Positions 3,981-30,557 of a DNA stretch of 30,557 nt are shown here, piece after piece. The notes beneath the pieces are model-generated. The model was given only the letters and a program-made list of their open reading frames with translations. It had not been told where the DNA came from and did not search any database. This DNA comes from a virus, in IMG/VR virus record IMGVR_UViG_3300043431_000397, positions 1-30,557 of that record. One strand, 5' to 3'. Made by a program: the position numbers and the translations under genes. The first letter of the stretch is position 1. Each line of letters opens with the position of its first letter.

Positions 3981-4219
3981 TGTCGCCTCCGGATTTTGTT
4001 TTCATCGGTGCCGATAAAACCAAGGTTCTTGCCGCAGCCTTTGCATATCGCGGCACAAGACCTCGTTTCGTTAACACCAGCGGTGTGTTTGCAGCGTCGT
4101 TGTTTAAGCAGCTCTTTTAGATTTAGGTACGTAACTGCTCCGAAAACGATTAGCATTACCAAAACCGCAAGGGCGGCCACAAATAGTTTCAGCCCGAAAT
4201 AGAGGTTTACAAAGAACAT
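3977..4219 (-). CDS. Small single-pass membrane protein with C-terminal Cys pairs
   Basis: 80 residues from the ATG at 4219; the frame also allows a start at 4282 (101 residues), but no ribosome site precedes that one and it would overlap the upstream gene by 76 bases. One long hydrophobic helix (LKLFVAALAVLVMLIVFGAV, about residues 10-31) is followed by a basic region and a cytoplasmic-type tail with C..C pairs (SCAAICKGCGKNLGF), which may bind zinc. Start choice is uncertain. It overlaps the next gene by ATGA. Confidence 0.6.
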   Translation of the reverse strand: MFFVNLYFGLKLFVAALAVLVMLIVFGAVTYLNLKELLKQRRCKHTAGVNETRSCAAICKGCGKNLGFIGTDENKIRRRQ

Positions 4220-4398
4220 GTTCGTGTACCCATAAAATATTTTGTGCGTGATATTTGCTGTTTGTGTCCGAGTTTCGGCCATCCGTAACTTGGGCGAAGG
4301 TGATACGGTCGCGCTTTGTATTCGCGCTTCAAGCGTTTTACAGGTATCTGGCTTACTACCGCTGCCAGGCGGATTCGTTTTGCTGCTTTACCGTTCAT
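4207..4398 (-). CDS. Small, very basic protein of unknown function
   Basis: 63 residues, rich in Lys and Arg (AAKRIRLAA, VKRLKREYKARPYHLRPS), possibly nucleic-acid binding. The start is well supported by AACGAGGAAAAAAT, the standard local leader. It is the first gene downstream of the left 37-bp repeat array, whose end lies only about 15 bases upstream of the start codon. No family recognised. Confidence 0.65.
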   Translation of the reverse strand: MNGKAAKRIRLAAVVSQIPVKRLKREYKARPYHLRPSYGWPKLGHKQQISRTKYFMGTRTCSL

Positions 4399-4412: not shown

Positions 4413-4776
4413 GGGTCGCTCTTGGTCAATGGTTGTGTTCTTGCGCAGTGGCTCGCTTCTGGTAGATGTGTCAGGTATGTTTTAAAGGCGCGCGTTATAC
4501 CCTCCTGGGTTTGTTTAGGTTCAAAGGCTCACTTTCTTTTATCGGGTCCGGTAAATATTATTGGTTCGCATTTCTCACATGGGTCTGTTAGTTTGTCATG
4601 GCGCGATAAGGGCTTACGTTACTGCTTGAGTTACATGGCGCACTCGTATCGGGCGGGTCGGTTTCATATTTCGGGTTCACTATTTTTCTCAGTGTCTGTT
4701 TTCATAGGGCGGCGCGCTAGTATCAATGCGGGTCTGGCTGTTCCAATCGGCGCGATAATTCAATTTGGGTCTGTTA
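4413..4776. repeat. Left array: 10 degenerate direct repeats with 37-bp period
   Basis: The otherwise gene-free 384 bp after the IS110-domain gene is built of units starting at 4413, 4450, 4487, 4526, 4563, 4600, 4638, 4674, 4711 and 4749 (steps 36-39, mostly 37). On the + strand each unit reads roughly GGYKCRCT, ten variable bases, GGGTCTGTTA, then about nine variable bases. Box 1 examples are GGCTCACT, GGTTCACT, GGCGCGCT; box 2 examples are GGGTCTGTTA (4581, 4767), GTGTCTGTTT (4692). Unit 4600 is the weakest. The spacing of the two boxes (18 then 19 bp) means a GG-led box recurs about every 18.5 bp. The + strand is G/T-rich, so the leftward RNA would be C/A-rich and weakly structured. A long open frame on the + strand crosses it, but its product looks non-biological and the 37-bp period is not a codon multiple. 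Confidence 0.85.
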
Positions 4777-4782
4777 ATGGTC

Positions 4783-5670
4783 TTAGCCGTACGGGGCCGG
4801 ATGACTATGCACCAGGCCGAGTTTTTCTTCAGCGTATGAAGGTCGGACTTCTAGGCCTTCCAACCGGCGCCAGAAAGTCCAAAGGTCGGCCAAAAGCATC
4901 TTAATCATATAGCGCTTGGCCATTGCGTTGCGGTGCCCCTTGCTTTTGTCCTTATGTTTCGGGTGGTTCTCCAAGCGGTTTTTGTAATCGGTATAGGTGT
5001 CCTTGTACGGGCCGCCCAATTTGATAATCACGTCGGCCAAAACACCCACCATTTTGGTTTTCAGGAACGGGTTGTACGTGATCCCCACGGTGTCGACGAC
5101 TTCGCCGGCACGGTTGGTGTATTGTTTCGGTACCAGGTGGGCTTTACGCATGCTGCGGCCTTCGCCCACTATATCGCCGTTGTCGTCTCGGGTAACGACA
5201 TCTAACCCAACGTATTTCCACAATGCTGATATGGAATTACACTTGTGGATGTCAATTTCGGAAAGCATAACGCCGGCCATCAGAGGTCCAACGCCACGCA
5301 CGTTGACCAGGTATTCGGTCCATATCGGTTCGCGTGTGAGTTCGTCCGCAATGGCTTTTTCGTGTACGGCCTCGGCTTCCAGTTGCCGCTCGTACGATTC
5401 GATCAACGCCAGTTCGGCTCGGGTGGTCAATAACTTGCTGTCGGATTTAAAGTCTTTGGTAATGCGCTTTACCCCGTCGGTGACGCGTTTGAATTCTTTG
5501 CGCAAGTCGTCGAGTATTTCGGCGGCTTCTTTCACCTCTTCTTCGGCTTGCGAAGAGTGGAGCCCCAGCTTCACACGGAAGGCAGCAGCGATACGGTTGC
5601 CGTTCTGAATCCGCAATTGTTGCAGATCGTAGAAAGAGCGGATGCTTGCACGGATCATTGGGTTTGACAT
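4783..5670 (-). CDS. Protein with IS110/IS116/IS902-type C-terminal transposase domain but no DEDD domain
   Basis: 295 residues. Residues 1-115 are a charged helical region with coiled-coil character (EEEVKEAAEILDDLRKEFK, RQLEAEAVHEKAIADEL). From about residue 122 comes VRGVGPLMAGVMLSEI, the helix-hairpin-helix opening of the Transposase_20 (IS110 C-terminal) domain, then SALWKYVGLDV, GEGRSMRKAHL and YNPFLKTKMVGVLADVIIK, ending with MAKRYMIKMLLADLWTFWR. The N-terminal RuvC-like DEDD domain of IS110 recombinases is absent, so it is not a complete IS110 transposase. Ser173 in GEGRS might correspond to the IS110 catalytic serine, but I cannot verify this alignment. Good ribosome site (GAGGAACTAAAA). 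Both sides of the gene are occupied by 37-bp-period repeat arrays, and the gene upstream is a ClpX-like AAA+ ATPase. Phages carry related stand-alone proteins annotated as transposases; their role is unknown. Confidence 0.75.
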   Translation of the reverse strand: MSNPMIRASIRSFYDLQQLRIQNGNRIAAAFRVKLGLHSSQAEEEVKEAAEILDDLRKEFKRVTDGVKRITKDFKSDSKLLTTRAELALIESYERQLEAEAVHEKAIADELTREPIWTEYLVNVRGVGPLMAGVMLSEIDIHKCNSISALWKYVGLDVVTRDDNGDIVGEGRSMRKAHLVPKQYTNRAGEVVDTVGITYNPFLKTKMVGVLADVIIKLGGPYKDTYTDYKNRLENHPKHKDKSKGHRNAMAKRYMIKMLLADLWTFWRRLEGLEVRPSYAEEKLGLVHSHPAPYG

Positions 5671-5686
5671 TTTTAGTTCCTCGTTT

Positions 5687-5982
5687 GGTTAGCTTTAATA
5701 TCATGGGTACGTTGGGTACGTTGGGTTCTTTTGGCGCGCTATATTGATTTGATTCTGTTTTGTTCGAGAGGCGCGCTAATATCGGGTGGTTTTGTCTTCG
5801 TTAATTGGCTCACTATTCCTGAAAGGGTCTATTACAATCACTTGGTTCACTTTTTGATAAAGGGGCTACTACTTGGTCCTGGTTCACTATTTCTCATTGG
5901 TTCTACTTGCGGAGCTCGGTTCGCTTACTTCTCATGGGTCAGTTTGTCTTACACGGCGCACTTGTTGGGAGTGGGTCTCTTA
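5687..5982. repeat. Right array: 8 degenerate direct repeats with 37-bp period
   Basis: The 331-bp gap between the AAA+ gene and the IS110-domain gene holds units starting at 5687, 5733, 5770, 5807, 5844, 5881, 5918 and 5955. Apart from the first step (46 = 37 + 9, caused by a tandem duplication of GGGTACGTT), every step is exactly 37 bp. Units have the same two boxes as the left array: for example GGTTCACT (5844, 5881), GGCGCGCT (5733, 5770), then ten bases, then GGGTCTATTA (5825) or GGGTCTCTTA (5973). The first unit ends about 15 bp upstream of the start codon of the IS110-domain gene and overlaps its leader. Confidence 0.88.
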
Positions 5983-6001
5983 ATGGGACTTGGTGCTTTT
6001 C

Positions 6002-6877
6002 TTACCCCAAATCGTCCAAATCAGAGCCGAAACTCAGCTTCGATTGGAACGTCGAATGGGATACTTCCTCAACGGATAACTTGCCGTCATTTATAAAGTA
6101 AGCGTGGATCAGCGTCGTGATGATCCGGGCGCCGATGGTGTTATTTTCGTAGTTGGTTTCAATATGGCGGCTGATTTCACCTACCACTTTCTCCCGTGCT
6201 ACTTCGGGGAATAACTTCAGGTACGAAGACAGCAGACAGCTTTCCCGCAAGATCGATACCAGTTCATCCAAAGACAGTTTTTTCAGGTTGAAAATAAGGC
6301 CCACACGGCCCAGGAATTCGGTTTTAACGCCGAAGTCGCGCATACGGTCCAAGGTAACGTTTTCCTCGCCGTTGAACGCGCCAGCAAAGACAAACAACAC
6401 CTTGTCGACCGGCACGTTAACGTACTTGCCGTAGTCACCGTAGACCGACGCGTGGTTCGATTCCAGCACTTTCAGGAATTCATTCTGTACGCCCAAGGTC
6501 GTTTCATGCGCGATCGAACTATTGTTATTGCCTGAGATAAACAGCTTGTCAAATTCGTCGACGAAGCAGAGGATTTGCTTGCCGGTTTTGTTGATGATCG
6601 GCGACAGCGCTTTGCTCAAGCTGTTGCCGCTGGTGCCCTCTTTGGTCAATTGGGCAGCATTGACCTCCATGTATTCCATATCAAGCATTTCGCACAACGT
6701 ACGCAGCGTGTGGGTCTTGCCAGAGCCGGATGGTCCGACCACCGTAAAGTGTGGTCGGATAGCCGACTTTGATGCTTTGAAAATTTCCAGTACCCGGCGG
6801 ATTTTATCCAACTCGGACTTTGGGGCTTTGTTAATCGTGGGTACGACTTTTGGTTTGGCGGCGGTTGCAGAGGCCAT
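6002..6877 (-). CDS. ClpX-like AAA+ ATPase with atypical pore loop
   Basis: 291 residues. Walker A GPSGSGKT (48-55), Walker B ILCFVDEFD (102-110), sensor-1-like VFAGAFNG (163-170), the EFLGR arginine-finger block (187-191) and sensor-2 GARIITTLI (249-257) follow the ClpX/HslU order. It lacks the N-terminal zinc domain of ClpX. Where ClpX has the pore-1 motif GYVG after LTEA, this protein has LTKEGTSG (77-84): the substrate-gripping aromatic residue is missing, so classical unfolding/threading is doubtful and a remodelling or loader role is as likely. Start is supported by GGAG and by the promoter just upstream. The next gene downstream, beyond the right repeat array, is the IS110-domain protein; AAA+ partners of transposases exist (MuB, IstB, TnsC), but those belong to another AAA+ clade. 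Confidence 0.85.
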   Translation of the reverse strand: MASATAAKPKVVPTINKAPKSELDKIRRVLEIFKASKSAIRPHFTVVGPSGSGKTHTLRTLCEMLDMEYMEVNAAQLTKEGTSGNSLSKALSPIINKTGKQILCFVDEFDKLFISGNNNSSIAHETTLGVQNEFLKVLESNHASVYGDYGKYVNVPVDKVLFVFAGAFNGEENVTLDRMRDFGVKTEFLGRVGLIFNLKKLSLDELVSILRESCLLSSYLKLFPEVAREKVVGEISRHIETNYENNTIGARIITTLIHAYFINDGKLSVEEVSHSTFQSKLSFGSDLDDLG

Positions 6878-22254: not shown

Positions 22255-22263
22255 TGGCCTTCC

Positions 22264-22392
22264 GGTCTGCGGTCTGCGGTCTGCGGTCTGCGGTCTGCGG
22301 TCTGCGGTCTGCGGTCTGCGGTCTGCGGTCTGCGGTCTGCGGTCTGCGGTCTGCGGTCTGCGGTCTGCGGTCTGCGGTCTGCGGTCTGCGGT
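22264..22392. repeat. Tandem array of the 7-bp unit GGTCTGC (about 18.4 copies)
   Basis: 129 bp of perfect 7-bp repeats begin ten bases after the stop of the gene at 21721. As 7 is not a multiple of three, all frames stay open on both strands and create spurious frames with a seven-residue period. The copy number should be prone to slippage. On the other strand the unit reads GCAGACC. Confidence 0.95.
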
Positions 22393-23081: not shown

Positions 23082-23456
23082 ATGGCCACCAACATAATTG
23101 ATTTTTCAAAAGGGACGCTCCGCAATCCCACGCCGAATCCCAATCCCAATCCCAATCCCAATCCCAATCCCAATCCCAATCCCACGCCCGCGCCCAATCC
23201 CACACCCAATCCCACACCCACGCCCGTAAACGAGGGGTTACTACTCATTCTCGAAGATTTACTGCGACGCACAAAGACAGGCGAGTTGCGGACGTTAGTG
23301 GTGCTAGGACTTTGCGATGATAAGGGGATTATTGATGGGTGGTGCTTAGACCCGTATTCGCCAGACAATAGCTATCCGTACGTACATATCGGAGGATTGG
23401 CGGCGCTGCAACGGGATTTTATGAACGCTACAATACCGCATCGCGAACAGGACTAA
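23082..23456 (+). CDS. Small protein with an Asn-Pro repeat, first gene of the late operon
   Basis: 124 residues. After MATNIIDFSKGTLRNP comes a low-complexity Asn-Pro/Thr-Pro stretch (about residues 15-49), encoded by tandem hexamers AATCCC, acting as a rigid extended linker. The C-terminal domain (LLLILEDLLRRTKTGELRTL, VVLGLCDDKGIIDGWCL, YVHIGGLAALQRDFM) looks like a compact alpha/beta unit; 'r.GEl..lvvlg..ddG....w......y.higgl..l..d' is a pattern I have seen in small phage proteins of unknown role. The start is well supported by AACGAGGACCCT. It precedes the membrane peptide and TerS. Confidence 0.7.
   Translation: MATNIIDFSKGTLRNPTPNPNPNPNPNPNPNPNPTPAPNPTPNPTPTPVNEGLLLILEDLLRRTKTGELRTLVVLGLCDDKGIIDGWCLDPYSPDNSYPYVHIGGLAALQRDFMNATIPHREQD
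23134..23182 (+). repeat. Hexanucleotide tandem repeat AATCCC inside a gene
   Basis: About eight near-perfect copies encode alternating Asn-Pro. Length changes by slippage would add or remove Asn-Pro pairs without breaking the frame. Confidence 0.85.
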
Positions 23457-27173: not shown

Positions 27174-29600
27174 ATGACCAACATCACACCGCTAGACCCG
27201 CAGGCGTCACTTGAGGGCGGACAGTACAAGCCTAATCAGTACATGGCGGCGCCTACCGTCAATGCGGTGGATTCAGTTGGAATGGACGCAACAACCACAC
27301 CAGGAAAAGCCCTCCGGTCTGCAACAGGTATTGGGGGCGCGCATGTCGACTGGCTAGGGATGGCGCGGCAAGCGTATCAAGCTAGCGAATCGTGGTTACA
27401 GGTGAACATGCGACAACAGTGGGCGCGATCCTTTGCCCATTACCGCTCAGAGCATTCCCCTGACTCGCCCCTACTGGCCGAAGCCAATAAGTACCGGGCG
27501 AAATATTTCTGGCCGAAGACGCGTACCCTGGTGCGCGATATTCAGGCCGCCGCTGCAGCCGCGTACTTCACCAGTTCGGACGTGGTGGCCATCGAGGCGC
27601 AAGACGACAGCAACCCGTTGCAAGTACAAGCGGCGTTGTTCATTAAGGAACTCACAAACTACCGGCTAACGCATTCGGTACCGTGGTATCAAATCGTACT
27701 GGGCGGAATCCAAGAAGCGGCGGTAATGGGTACGGTGGCATCGCACCAATCCTGGTCGTACAAAGAAGTCGAAATGAGCCGCGTAGTTGGCGAAGACGTC
27801 GAGGGCCAACCGATCTATGAATACTACACGCAGGTCGTTGAAGACGAATTGAAGGTCCGTATCGTACCTGTCGAAAACATCCGCATATCCCCCGCTGCCG
27901 ATTGGCTAGACCCGGCCAACAGTTCCCCGTATTTTATCGAACTTATCCCGATGTACATCGGGGACGTTATGGATCGTATTCGCCAAGGGGGCTCTGAAAA
28001 AACGGGCGAACCTACCTGGCGAAACATTGGCGAAGGCGCGTTACTCGGATCGGGTAGCCGCGACAACATTGATCCTACCCGCAGGGCGCGTGCTGGTAAC
28101 CGACGGTTGGACCCAAAAGCCAACATGATGGAAACCATAAACGATTTTAGGATCGTTTGGATTCATCGAAATATTGTGCGACACGACGGTATTGACTGGC
28201 TGTACTACACAGCGGGCGTGAACACCCTGTTATCCGATCCTGTTCCGCTACAACAAGTAATCCCATGGGCCGGCGGCAAACGCGATTACGTGTTGGGCAA
28301 GATGGAGATTGAAACCGATCGGCCTTACCCAAGCGGACCGGTTGAGCTTGCCAGCGGCATGCAGAAAGCGATCAACGAACTGAAGAACCAACGGTACGAC
28401 AACGTGCGCCAAGTTCTGAACCGTCGTTATTTGTACCGCGCAGGCAACCAAGTCGACGCCCGGGCCTTGTCTCGCAACATCCCGGGTGGTCTGATAAGCG
28501 TAGCCGCACCAGGCCCGCTCGATAGTCACGTCACACCACTACCCGTACAAGACGTCACATCGTCAGCGTACCAGGAAGAAGATCGGTTGTCGTTGGCAAT
28601 GGACGATTTGACCGGATCGACTACAGGATCGACAGTCAATTCCAATCGCAGGCTGCACGAAACAGCCACCGGCATGAACTTAATGGCCGAGGCCGGTAAT
28701 AAAGTACGCGAAATGGAGTTACGTACGTTTACCGAAACGTGGATGGAGCCCGTCTTGCGTCAAATCGTGCAATTGGAAGCGATGTACGAGACCGACGAAA
28801 TTGCGATGACGGTTGCGGCTGGAAAATTGCAATTACTGAGTATTTTGCCCGAGTTTTTCAACCAAACATTCGCCGTATCGGTCAATGTGGGGATGGGCGC
28901 CGTCAGTCCGCAACAACGTTTGCAAAAAATTCAGACAGCCGTGGCAACTGTTACGCAATTGGTACCCGATGCGGCCATGGCGATCAACGGCGCCGAGGTT
29001 GCCAAAGAGGTATTTGGTGCGGCGGGCTTCGATAATGGTACGCGGTTCTTCGATTTTGCTAAAGTTGAGCAAATGAAAGCCAATCCGCAGCCTGATCCGG
29101 CGCAACAATTGGCCCAACAACAGGCCCAACAAAAATTTGAGATAGACCAAGGCAAATTGCAGCTTGAACAAGGCAAATTGCAGCTTGAACAAGCCAAAGC
29201 AGAGGCCGCAAAAGAGCTTCAAGACGCCAAAATTGCTGAAATTATGACCAAAATGGACCTAATTTTGTCGCAAACCGACCATACAAAGTCGCAAACCGAC
29301 CTTACGAAAGCTAAAGCAACCACCGAAAAGGTCACGTCTATCTACGAAGCGTCCCAAACCGCTGGCGTCGTCGTCCAAAATCCCGCTGTGGCCGCTATTA
29401 CGGATGAAATATTGGGTTCGGCAGGCTTTGTGGACAGCAACGAGGGTCCTATTGTGCCAGAACCGGAAGTGCCAGTGGACGCACCTATTCTTTTACCCGA
29501 GCCGGTACAAACGAGCCCGGCTTTACCCGCTCCGCCAGCACCCGCAAACCGCGGAATTCTACGGGGCATCGAAACCACTCAACTGGAGAGTAACACATGA
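27174..29600 (+). CDS. Portal protein (P22-like)
   Basis: 808 residues. N-terminal region after a flexible start: WLQVNMRQQWARSFAHYRSE, YFWPKTRTLVRDIQAAAAAA, YFTSSDVVAIEAQDD, then WYQIVLGGIQEAAVMGTVAS and the conserved-looking stem/clip region (RIVPVENIRISPAADWLDPA). The C-terminal third has helices (SLAMDDLTGSTTGS, METIND) and, from about residue 640, a Gln-rich coiled coil with tandem LEQGKLQ heptads and two QTD.TKS units. It forms the dodecameric ring through which DNA enters and leaves the head. Length and order after TerL support a P22-type portal; the extended C-terminal coil would be a barrel-like extension. Ribosome site AAGGTAGCACT. Confidence 0.85.
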   Translation: MTNITPLDPQASLEGGQYKPNQYMAAPTVNAVDSVGMDATTTPGKALRSATGIGGAHVDWLGMARQAYQASESWLQVNMRQQWARSFAHYRSEHSPDSPLLAEANKYRAKYFWPKTRTLVRDIQAAAAAAYFTSSDVVAIEAQDDSNPLQVQAALFIKELTNYRLTHSVPWYQIVLGGIQEAAVMGTVASHQSWSYKEVEMSRVVGEDVEGQPIYEYYTQVVEDELKVRIVPVENIRISPAADWLDPANSSPYFIELIPMYIGDVMDRIRQGGSEKTGEPTWRNIGEGALLGSGSRDNIDPTRRARAGNRRLDPKANMMETINDFRIVWIHRNIVRHDGIDWLYYTAGVNTLLSDPVPLQQVIPWAGGKRDYVLGKMEIETDRPYPSGPVELASGMQKAINELKNQRYDNVRQVLNRRYLYRAGNQVDARALSRNIPGGLISVAAPGPLDSHVTPLPVQDVTSSAYQEEDRLSLAMDDLTGSTTGSTVNSNRRLHETATGMNLMAEAGNKVREMELRTFTETWMEPVLRQIVQLEAMYETDEIAMTVAAGKLQLLSILPEFFNQTFAVSVNVGMGAVSPQQRLQKIQTAVATVTQLVPDAAMAINGAEVAKEVFGAAGFDNGTRFFDFAKVEQMKANPQPDPAQQLAQQQAQQKFEIDQGKLQLEQGKLQLEQAKAEAAKELQDAKIAEIMTKMDLILSQTDHTKSQTDLTKAKATTEKVTSIYEASQTAGVVVQNPAVAAITDEILGSAGFVDSNEGPIVPEPEVPVDAPILLPEPVQTSPALPAPPAPANRGILRGIETTQLESNT
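29148..29189 (+). repeat. 21-bp tandem repeat within the portal gene
   Basis: Two perfect copies of CAAGGCAAATTGCAGCTTGA plus one base, encoding two identical heptads QGKLQLE of the C-terminal coil. The duplication keeps the heptad register. Confidence 0.9.
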
Positions 29601-29911
29601 CAGATTTAGCAGCTAAATATCAGAACGACCCGCTGATGCGGGCCGTGGTTCTGAGCACGGACGTAGAACATTTCATAAATCACAACAAAGTGGGTATGTA
29701 TTTGATGGCGCGAGCGGTCGAAAGCCGTGCAGACGCCTTAGAAAAGTTTGCGCATGTCGATCCTTTTCAAGCCAAAGCAGTGCTTGCGCTGCAATGGGAG
29801 CAAAAAATACCTGATCTGTTCATCCAATGGCTTGAGGAAGCCTTAGCCGCAGGAAGAGAAGCCGAAGAACAGATTCGGATAGAGGACGAGGCCACTACTA
29901 ACTATCGGTGA
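29597..29911 (+). CDS. Small helical protein of the head module, function unknown
   Basis: 104 residues, almost all helix and acidic at the end: MTDLAAKYQNDPLMRAVVLS, DVEHFINHNKVGMYLMARAV, DALEKFAHVDPFQAKAVLAL, then EEALAAGREAEEQIRIEDEA. Coupled to the portal by ATGA with ribosome site GGAGAGTAACAC. It could be a head-assembly factor; no family recognised. Confidence 0.75.
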   Translation: MTDLAAKYQNDPLMRAVVLSTDVEHFINHNKVGMYLMARAVESRADALEKFAHVDPFQAKAVLALQWEQKIPDLFIQWLEEALAAGREAEEQIRIEDEATTNYR

Positions 29912-29914
29912 CAT

Positions 29915-30310
29915 ATGGCATGGAAACCAACTAGAGCACACTGCCGTGTAGCTGCGTACAACAGGATGGCGGCGGCTAAATTGGAATCTTGGACTCTTGC
30001 ACCGGTAGCACGAAAAAAGGCGATAGTTGAACGGATGATGGCGCTTACCGGAGAGTCAAAAGGCGCGTGTTCAATGCACTACGATGCGGTAATGGCCGCA
30101 ATTGAGTATGAGTTGATACAAGGAAACCAAGTCGCGATGCCTGGAATTGGAAAGTTTCAACTAAAGGACAAACCAGCACAGCTTCGTAAGGATTCAGCAA
30201 CAGGTGATTATTACCGTGTAAACCCACGTAGGTATGTGAAATTCACGTTTAATCAAGCGTTTAAGCTGCGAATCCGGTACGCGGCGCAAAAGCAAGTAAC
30301 ACCCCAATAA
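29915..30310 (+). CDS. HU/IHF-like DNA-binding protein
   Basis: 131 residues. After a 30-residue basic N-terminal arm, residues about 32-122 follow the HU/IHF pattern: ARKKAIVERMMALTGESKGA, DAVMAAIEYELIQGNQVAMP, GIGKFQLKDKPAQLRKDSAT, then a second basic strand region and VKFTFNQAFKLRIR (k.vkF.pgk.Lk..i). HU-family proteins bend DNA by inserting the beta arms into the minor groove. Here the protein lies inside the head operon, so it may condense or shape packaged DNA, or act at the packaging site. The arm residues differ from host HU, so binding properties are open. Confidence 0.8.
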   Translation: MAWKPTRAHCRVAAYNRMAAAKLESWTLAPVARKKAIVERMMALTGESKGACSMHYDAVMAAIEYELIQGNQVAMPGIGKFQLKDKPAQLRKDSATGDYYRVNPRRYVKFTFNQAFKLRIRYAAQKQVTPQ

Positions 30311-30313
30311 TGT

Positions 30314-30341
30314 TTGACTTTTTGCGAATACACATGATATT
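30314..30341 (+). promoter_or_regulatory. Putative promoter before the last gene
   Basis: TTGACT (30314-30319) and GATATT (30336-30341, 4 of 6 matches) with 16 bases between, in the 88-bp gap after the HU-like gene. It would give an extra transcript for the gene at 30399. Confidence 0.35.
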
Positions 30342-30398
30342 GAAAACGTATCCTCTAAAAGTCGGGATTTTTTAACCTTCTCGAAACCAGGAATAAAA

Positions 30399-30557
30399 AT
30401 GGCTACCGAAGAAAATTTAAACACAGACGAAAGCGCGGCTTCCGAATCGGCCCCGCCAAAGCGGGATTATACGAAAGACGCAAACGTTAAAAAACGTTTG
30501 AACGCGGGCAAAAGAAGCTCCGCTCGTAACGCCGGTAAAGAAATAAACGACGTCGTT
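30399..30557 (+). CDS. Start of a gene cut by the window edge
   Basis: The first 53 residues are visible: MATEENLNTDESAASESAPP, KRDYTKDANVKKRLNAGKRS, SARNAGKEINDVV. The N-terminus is acidic and disordered, followed by a basic Lys/Arg-rich region. The start has AGGAATAAAA as ribosome site. From its place after the portal and HU-like genes it could be a scaffold, decoration or head-associated protein, but there is no sequence evidence for any of these. Confidence 0.7.
   Translation, partial: MATEENLNTDESAASESAPPKRDYTKDANVKKRLNAGKRSSARNAGKEINDVV

What the first reader, a model, noticed from the sequence alone, without database searches (positions are those of the whole stretch)
4413..5982. Two arrays of degenerate direct repeats with a 37-bp period on both sides of one gene
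The gene at 4783-5670 is flanked by 10 units (4413-4776) and 8 units (5687-5982) of the same two-box repeat: GGYKCRCT, ten variable bases, GGGTCTGTTA, nine variable bases. In the right array all steps after the first are exactly 37 bp; in the left array they are 36-39. Boxes are conserved while the 10- and 9-base segments vary, so spacing and boxes are under selection rather than recent copying. 37 bp is about 3.5 helical turns and the boxes recur every 18-19 bp, consistent with a filament-forming DNA-binding protein; at the RNA level the leftward transcript would be a C/A-rich repeat RNA. It is neither a CRISPR array (repeats not identical) nor a coding repeat (37 is not a multiple of 3).
Basis: seen in the sequence. 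Interest (0 to 1): 0.88.

Follow-up and report, generated by a model that had tools for sequence, protein, structure and literature searches.

The report
Phage TIGR-TasA guide-RNA locus
The repeats on both sides of this phage gene are two arrays of short dual-spacer guide RNAs of the TIGR-Tas type, and the gene between them encodes the guide-binding protein TasA; this is a new example of an RNA-guided DNA-binding system described in 2025, and its irregular repeats show from sequence alone how each guide RNA closes on itself.

Summary
Period 37 is the strongest autocorrelation in both intergenic regions (z 5.7 and 8.5, with harmonics). The interpretation changes. Read on the minus strand, the strand of the gene, both regions are TIGR arrays: edge repeat (9 nt), spacer A (9), loop repeat (10), spacer B (9), 18 guide units in all. 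The gene between them is a Tas protein: curated NCBIfam model TIGR_Tas_endo (126.6 bits, cut-off 100), the only Foldseek matches below 0.001 are solved TasR and TasH structures, and no HNH or RuvC domain was found, so it is TasA.

Of 88 loci (window plus 87 homologues), about 79 carry such arrays beside tas. Period is 36 in all except the window and its closest relative (37).

The repeat degeneracy is compensatory. Base 6 of one edge repeat pairs with base 3 of the next (16 of 17 Watson-Crick, one G-U; permutation p < 5e-5), not with the same repeat. The same holds in 1005 homologous units. That is the signature of guide units cut inside the edge and closed by their two ends. Across homologues, the last bases of spacers A and B also covary, unexplained. 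Natural targets were sought and not found. New member of a known kind.

The parts
5687..6000 (-). Upstream TIGR array (R): truncated edge at 6000-5992, then 8 guide units, last edge AAGCTAACC at 5695-5687, directly before the ribosome-binding site of tasA. Spacer pairs A/B: AAGTCCCAT/ACTCCCAAC, GTGTAAGAC/ATGAGAAGT, GAGCTCCGC/AATGAGAAA, AGGACCAAG/TTTATCAAA, AAGTGATTG/TTTCAGGAA, AATTAACGA/ACCCGATAT, TCTCGAACA/AAATCAATA, AAAAGAACC/ATGATATTA
   Evidence: period 37, z 8.5. The frame of the spacers is uncertain by one base (after CC, or after CCA as in homologues).
5704..5726 (-). 9-bp tandem duplication of the loop repeat core in the last unit of array R, making that unit 46 nt long
4783..5670 (-). 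tasA, 295 aa: TIGR-associated protein (Nop-domain and coiled-coil fold) without a detected nuclease domain
   Evidence: NCBIfam NF052498 TIGR_Tas_endo 126.6 bits, cut-off 100; PDB TasR 9mty E 1.3e-23 and TasH 21kl E 3.7e-18 with profile A1; Foldseek matches below 0.001 are TasH and TasR chains only; no HNH or RuvC family in Pfam
4413..4776 (-). Downstream TIGR array (L): 10 loop repeats and 10 edge repeats, about 10 guide units, the first with a weak truncated edge that overlaps the tasA stop codon; last edge GAGCGACCC at 4421-4413, directly before the ribosome-binding site of the next gene
   Evidence: period 37, z 5.7
4207..4398 (-). 63-aa ORF of unknown function whose start codon follows array L; same operon direction
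   Evidence: no family match
6002..6877 (-). AAA+ ATPase (ClpX-like region, phrog_5534) directly upstream of array R; likely the upstream operon partner, no evidence that it acts with TasA
   Evidence: 75% DNA identity of a 300-bp part to Vibrio phages that did not match at tasA

Best explanation
This is a phage TIGR-TasA locus. The leftward operon transcript carries two arrays of dual-spacer guide RNAs, one in front of and one behind tasA. In the presence of TasA the transcript is cut inside each edge repeat, giving about 18 guide RNAs of 37 nt. The 3' half of one edge and the 5' half of the next then pair and close each guide, with the loop repeat as the second anchor. A TasA dimer binds one guide and uses it to open a matching DNA site, spacer A pairing with one strand and spacer B with the other. 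Having no nuclease domain, TasA should bind and bend the DNA without cutting it, so the most likely effect is blocking transcription or replication of rival mobile elements or of host genes. Shown here: the arrays, the family and fold of the protein, association with arrays in homologues, and covariation that matches the closed guide unit. Inferred from the published family: processing, DNA binding and strand geometry. Inferred by me: absence of cutting and the biological role.
For: Curated family hit TIGR_Tas_endo above cut-off. TasR and TasH of the PDB by sequence and, alone below E 0.001, by fold (AF2 pLDDT 79). Unit anatomy of the window equals the published one: alternating 8-12 nt repeats, 9-nt spacers, arrays upstream and/or downstream of tas, array starting with a truncated edge (PMC12045711). 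About 79 of 88 loci have such arrays next to tas, with edge AGCGAGCCA and loop AGAAACCCA types. Covariation of edge base 6 with base 3 of the NEXT edge: window 16 of 17 Watson-Crick plus one G-U, 0 of 20000 permutations, against 10 of 19 within the same edge; homologues AT 210, GC 201, AC 9, GT 12 at lag 1 against 172, 176, 61, 69 at lag 0; 1005 unique units, z 22.5. Second pair, edge base 7 with base 2: CG 406, TA 274, TG 304, CA 5.
Against: The repeats are more degenerate than in most homologues (edge mean pairwise identity 0.72-0.76 against a median of 0.88), and the unit is 37 nt rather than 36. No terminator was confirmed behind the arrays; each ends at the ribosome-binding site of the next gene. 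No target was found. No expression data. The published DNA-targeting data concern TasR and TasH; for TasA only guide binding was shown.
Confidence: 0.93

Rival explanations
1. The boxes are double-stranded binding sites for a filament-forming or partition-type DNA-binding protein.
For: Regular spacing near 3.5 helical turns with half steps of 18-19 bp.
Against: Covariation between base 6 of one box and base 3 of the next box, 34 bases on, in Watson-Crick and G-U form, has no reason in a DNA site array; the neighbouring protein is a Tas protein; homologous arrays run at 36, not 37; the arrays have the orientation of tas.
Confidence: 0.02
2. A domesticated IS110-type transposase with bridge-RNA-like repeats, i.e. 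a transposition or inversion system.
For: PHROG 4285 calls the family 'transposase', Pfam Transposase_20 matches weakly (E 0.0043, below cut-off), and IS621 and ISCro4 recombinases are distant fold matches.
Against: NCBIfam IS110 model 28 bits against a cut-off of 140, while TIGR_Tas_endo passes. No DEDD domain was found: residues 1-112 are modelled as long helices. No bridge RNA in Rfam scan; tandem arrays of about 18 units are not IS110 anatomy.
Confidence: 0.02
3. A decaying TIGR locus: the arrays are degenerate because the system is no longer used.
For: Weakest periodicity among the better arrays (0.46-0.57), a loop repeat duplication in one unit, two spacers of 10 and 11 nt.
Against: tasA is an intact ORF with conserved columns; the edge variants are compensatory in 17 of 17 units, which decay would not preserve; other arrays are as divergent or more so.
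Confidence: 0.05

Closest known systems
TIGR-TasA systems (Faure et al. 2025, PMC12045711)
   Same: Solo Nop-domain Tas protein; dual-repeat arrays with 9-nt spacers upstream and downstream of tas; phage location; arrays on the tas strand starting with a truncated edge
   Different: 37-nt instead of 36-nt unit (loop repeat 10 nt); strongly degenerate but compensating edges; arrays end at the ribosome-binding site of the following gene rather than at a recognised terminator; no TasParB gene recognised in the neighbourhood that was scanned
SpTasH of Salicola phage CGphi29 (27.5% identity) and TasH of PDB 21kl/9vzx/9w04
   Same: Nop-like C-terminal region and overall fold
   Different: TasH has an N-terminal HNH nuclease; the window protein has none detected
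TasR (PDB 9mty)
   Same: Fold and C-terminal motif; box C = CCA in the guide repeats
   Different: No RuvC domain detected here; box D reads AG instead of UG
IS110 transposases with bridge RNA; archaeal box C/D snoRNP Nop5
   Same: Distant fold similarity (8wt9, 9t56, 3pla), two-part guide logic according to PMC12045711
   Different: No transposase domain, no transposon ends, guides in tandem arrays

Membership tests
TIGR-Tas | Nop-domain Tas protein encoded beside the array | tested here: met
   NCBIfam NF052498 126.6 bits, cut-off 100; PDB TasR/TasH by profile and by fold
TIGR-Tas | Two different alternating 8-12 nt repeats separated by 9-nt spacers | tested here: met
   Edge 9, loop 10; 9-nt spacers with two exceptions of 10 and 11, plus the duplicated last unit of array R
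TIGR-Tas | Array upstream and/or downstream of tas, beginning with a truncated edge and ending in an edge | tested here: met
   Both sides; truncated edge at 6000-5992; last edges at 5695-5687 and 4421-4413. The truncated first edge of array L is weak.
TIGR-Tas | Rho-independent terminator after the array | tested here: not met
   No terminator-like site on the minus strand directly after either array. Described as typical and predicted in the paper, not as defining; here each array leads into the next gene.
TIGR-Tas | Base pairs between the two edge halves of one tigRNA | tested here: met
   Inter-edge covariation
TIGR-Tas | Processing to 36-nt RNAs bound by Tas | not testable with these tools
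   Needs small-RNA sequencing
TIGR-Tas | Guide-dependent DNA binding, A on one strand and B on the other | not testable with these tools
   Needs biochemistry; target searches negative
TasA subtype | No HNH or RuvC nuclease domain | tested here: met
   No such Pfam family up to E 10; residues 1-112 modelled as long helices; the TasH match starts at query residue 113
TIGR TasParB operon | ParB-like gene in operon with tasA | tested here: inconclusive
   None of the neighbouring genes scanned matched a ParB family (Pfam; PHROGs), but several had no match at all
IS110 transposon | DEDD transposase passing the family model | tested here: not met
   28.2 bits against 140
CRISPR array | Near-identical 25-36 nt repeats with spacers of similar size | tested here: not met
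   Repeats of 9 and 10 nt, 63-76% pairwise identity

The most novel reading that the evidence does not exclude
In TasA systems the two spacers of a guide are not independent: their last bases (a9 and b9) tend to be complementary (360 of 1005 units against 236 expected, z 10.2, alone among 81 position pairs; above expectation in 56 of 62 arrays). This would mean that part of the natural targets are read with a one-base-pair overlap at the centre, or that the two spacers pair with each other at the crossing point of the guide. The 2025 paper reported no obvious covariation between the spacers.
Probability: 0.4. Interest if true: 0.6.

Novelty: new member of a known kind. Interest (0 to 1): 0.5.

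Why it matters
TIGR-Tas systems were described only in 2025, their natural targets and the origin of their spacers are open questions, and nuclease-free TasA is the least understood type. This locus adds a compact phage TasA with two arrays. Because its repeats are degenerate, one can see that each guide unit carries its own closing base pair, formed by two neighbouring edge repeats. That is sequence-only support for the cut-in-the-edge model, gives a way to tell live arrays from decaying ones, and fits the whole-unit sharing and loss seen between related phages. The covariation of the last spacer bases is a constraint that any model of TasA targeting will have to explain.

Tried and rejected
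Self-targets in the window in three strand geometries: nothing above re-paired controls. Targets of the form A + 0-2 bases + rc(B) for 1325 spacer pairs in 1.19 Mb of phage loci: 7 at 17 of 18 against 14 in the control geometry. One-base overlap geometry: no excess, 7 at 16 of 17 against 8 and 4 in controls. Whole IMG/VR scans with two guides, exact 9+9: no hit. Two guides with 8+8 cores: 28 and 87 scattered contigs, none close to the window phage, judged chance. Rfam: no known RNA family. PADLOC 2023: no model for the protein; it predates TIGR-Tas. I considered whether ordinary genomic dinucleotide bias at a contiguous target centre explains the a9/b9 signal: it is too strong and correlates poorly (0.24) with the bias inside spacers. 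A single-nucleotide frame ambiguity of the window spacers (after CC or after CCA) could not be resolved.

Full report
Observation. In both regions lag 37 is the strongest autocorrelation, with harmonics and half steps, well above dinucleotide shuffles. The gene and the neighbouring ORFs lie on the minus strand. Read on that strand, both regions parse as alternating repeats: edge WAGYGMRCC (9 nt) and loop about TAACAGACCC (10 nt), separated by 9-nt variable segments. There are 18 loop repeats and about 18 guide units, 8 upstream and 10 downstream of the gene. The exceptions are spacers of 10 and 11 nt in the left array and a 9-bp duplication in the last right unit.

The protein. The 295-aa product was flagged as 'transposase' by PHROGs and weakly by Pfam Transposase_20. 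Against the PDB its sequence matches TasH (E 7.7e-14) and 9mty, listed there as an IS116/IS110/IS902 protein and titled TIGR-TasR in the fold search. A profile of eight homologues raises this to 1.3e-23 and 3.7e-18. The AF2 model (pLDDT 79) finds TasH and TasR chains as its only Foldseek matches below 0.001; IS110-type recombinases and archaeal Nop5 follow at insignificant E-values. NCBIfam's curated TIGR_Tas_endo model passes its cut-off, the IS110 model does not. No nuclease domain was detected: residues 1-112 are modelled as long helices and no HNH or RuvC family is found. Despite the NCBIfam name 'endonuclease' the protein is therefore TasA in the terms of PMC12045711.

Comparison with the described system. 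The paper (PMC12045711) describes 8-12 nt edge and loop repeats, 9-nt spacers, arrays upstream and/or downstream of tas that begin with a truncated edge and end with a truncated edge and a terminator, 36-nt tigRNAs cut in the middle of the edge, and spacers that pair with opposite strands. The window meets the anatomy. It differs by a 37-nt unit, by degenerate repeats and by arrays that lead into the ribosome-binding site of the next gene without a terminator.

Homologues. Scans of IMG/VR and GTDB contigs gave 87 further loci. A periodicity scan and unit parser found arrays beside tas in about 79 of the 88 loci; I discount some periodic stretches that are not TIGR arrays, for example at L054, L009 downstream and L046 downstream. 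Period is 36 throughout except in the window and L002, its closest relative at 64% protein identity, which has 37. Several loci without arrays are cut by contig ends, but L003 and L007 have sequence on both sides and no adjacent array.

Covariation. In a mature tigRNA the 5' end carries the second half of one edge repeat and the 3' end the first half of the next. In the window, edge base 6 (A or G) and base 3 (T or C) of the NEXT edge form 16 Watson-Crick pairs and one G-U in 17 comparisons, although within one and the same edge only 10 of 19 are Watson-Crick and 5 are mismatched. Shuffling edges within arrays never reached this in 20000 trials. It is the strongest column pair of an exhaustive edge-by-edge table. 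The homologues agree: at lag 1 AT 210, GC 201, AC 9, GT 12, at lag 0 172, 176, 61, 69. In 1005 unique units from 73 arrays, within-array permutation gives z 22.5 for this pair, by far the top of all 630 column pairs. A second pair, base 7 with base 2, shows CG, TA and TG but almost no CA. The paper describes these pairs from the structure and from covariation between loci; the within-array, inter-edge form was not found in its text.

A second signal. Of 81 combinations of spacer A and spacer B positions only the last-last pair (a9, b9) shows an excess of complementarity (360 observed, 236 expected, z 10.2), in 56 of 62 arrays with six or more units. The window has 11 of 18 (null mean 7.2, p 0.048). 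It exceeds ordinary dinucleotide bias. A one-base overlap of the two half-targets, a pairing of the two bases within the guide, or a preference for the central step of the target could each cause it. The paper states no obvious covariation of spacers. Related loci contribute related units, so the z value overstates the number of independent events. I regard the signal as likely real and its cause as open.

Array dynamics. Related phages share whole units in the same order with others gained or lost, for example L056 and L057, identical but for one unit. So the guide unit is what is kept or lost, consistent with the closing pair being a property of the unit.

Targets. No target was found for the window guides in its own genome, nor for 1325 spacer pairs in 1.19 Mb of phage loci, for contiguous, gapped or overlapping geometry, nor for four guides in the whole of IMG/VR. 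The target geometry A + rc(B) is my deduction from the 8-nt 3' overhangs reported and the IS110 parallel. Absence of self-targets fits a role against other elements or the host but does not prove it.

Mechanism and verdict. The best reading is a phage TIGR-TasA system: guides made from the operon transcript, TasA dimers that bind and open DNA without cutting, and an effect by obstruction. The family and anatomy are shown; processing and DNA binding are inferred from relatives; the biological role is a guess. It is a new member of a known kind, with two sequence signals that go beyond what I found in the paper.

Noticed in passing
window 22263-22392: Perfect 7-bp tandem repeat (CGGTCTG) x 18.6, at a place where the neighbouring genes switch from leftward to rightward.
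   Followed up: no
window 23123-23225: Hexamer-based repeat CAATCC/CCCACG, 15 copies, inside an ORF at 23082-23456 (+), so a coding repeat (Pro/Asn-rich) is possible.
   Followed up: no
73 homologous arrays; window units: Last base of spacer A and last base of spacer B tend to be complementary (z 10.2), cause unknown.
   Followed up: partly
window 5687-5671 and 4413-4399; L002 2959-2977: The last edge repeat lies directly before the ribosome-binding site of the next gene (tasA itself in the window and L002), so cutting or binding at that edge could regulate tasA translation.
   Followed up: no
L003 6001-6870 and L007 6001-6846: TasA homologues with flanking sequence on both sides but no adjacent TIGR array; guides may lie elsewhere or be absent.
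   Followed up: partly
L056, L057, L058, L059; L040-L045: Related phages whose TIGR arrays share whole units in order with single units gained or lost, useful for studying how arrays change.
   Followed up: partly
L100, L101, L104, L105, L106, L110: Contigs of 225-315 kb with longer matches to Tas (about 380-400 codons, with insertions) and long arrays of 25-58 units upstream, edge AGTGTATCA.
   Followed up: no
L033 1489-3302: Contig binned as Candidatus Micrarchaeum with a tas gene and an array of about 51 degenerate units.
   Followed up: no
window 28711-30557 and L011: L011 is a 97% identical stretch of the portal end of this phage from another sample; it does not reach the tas locus.
   Followed up: yes
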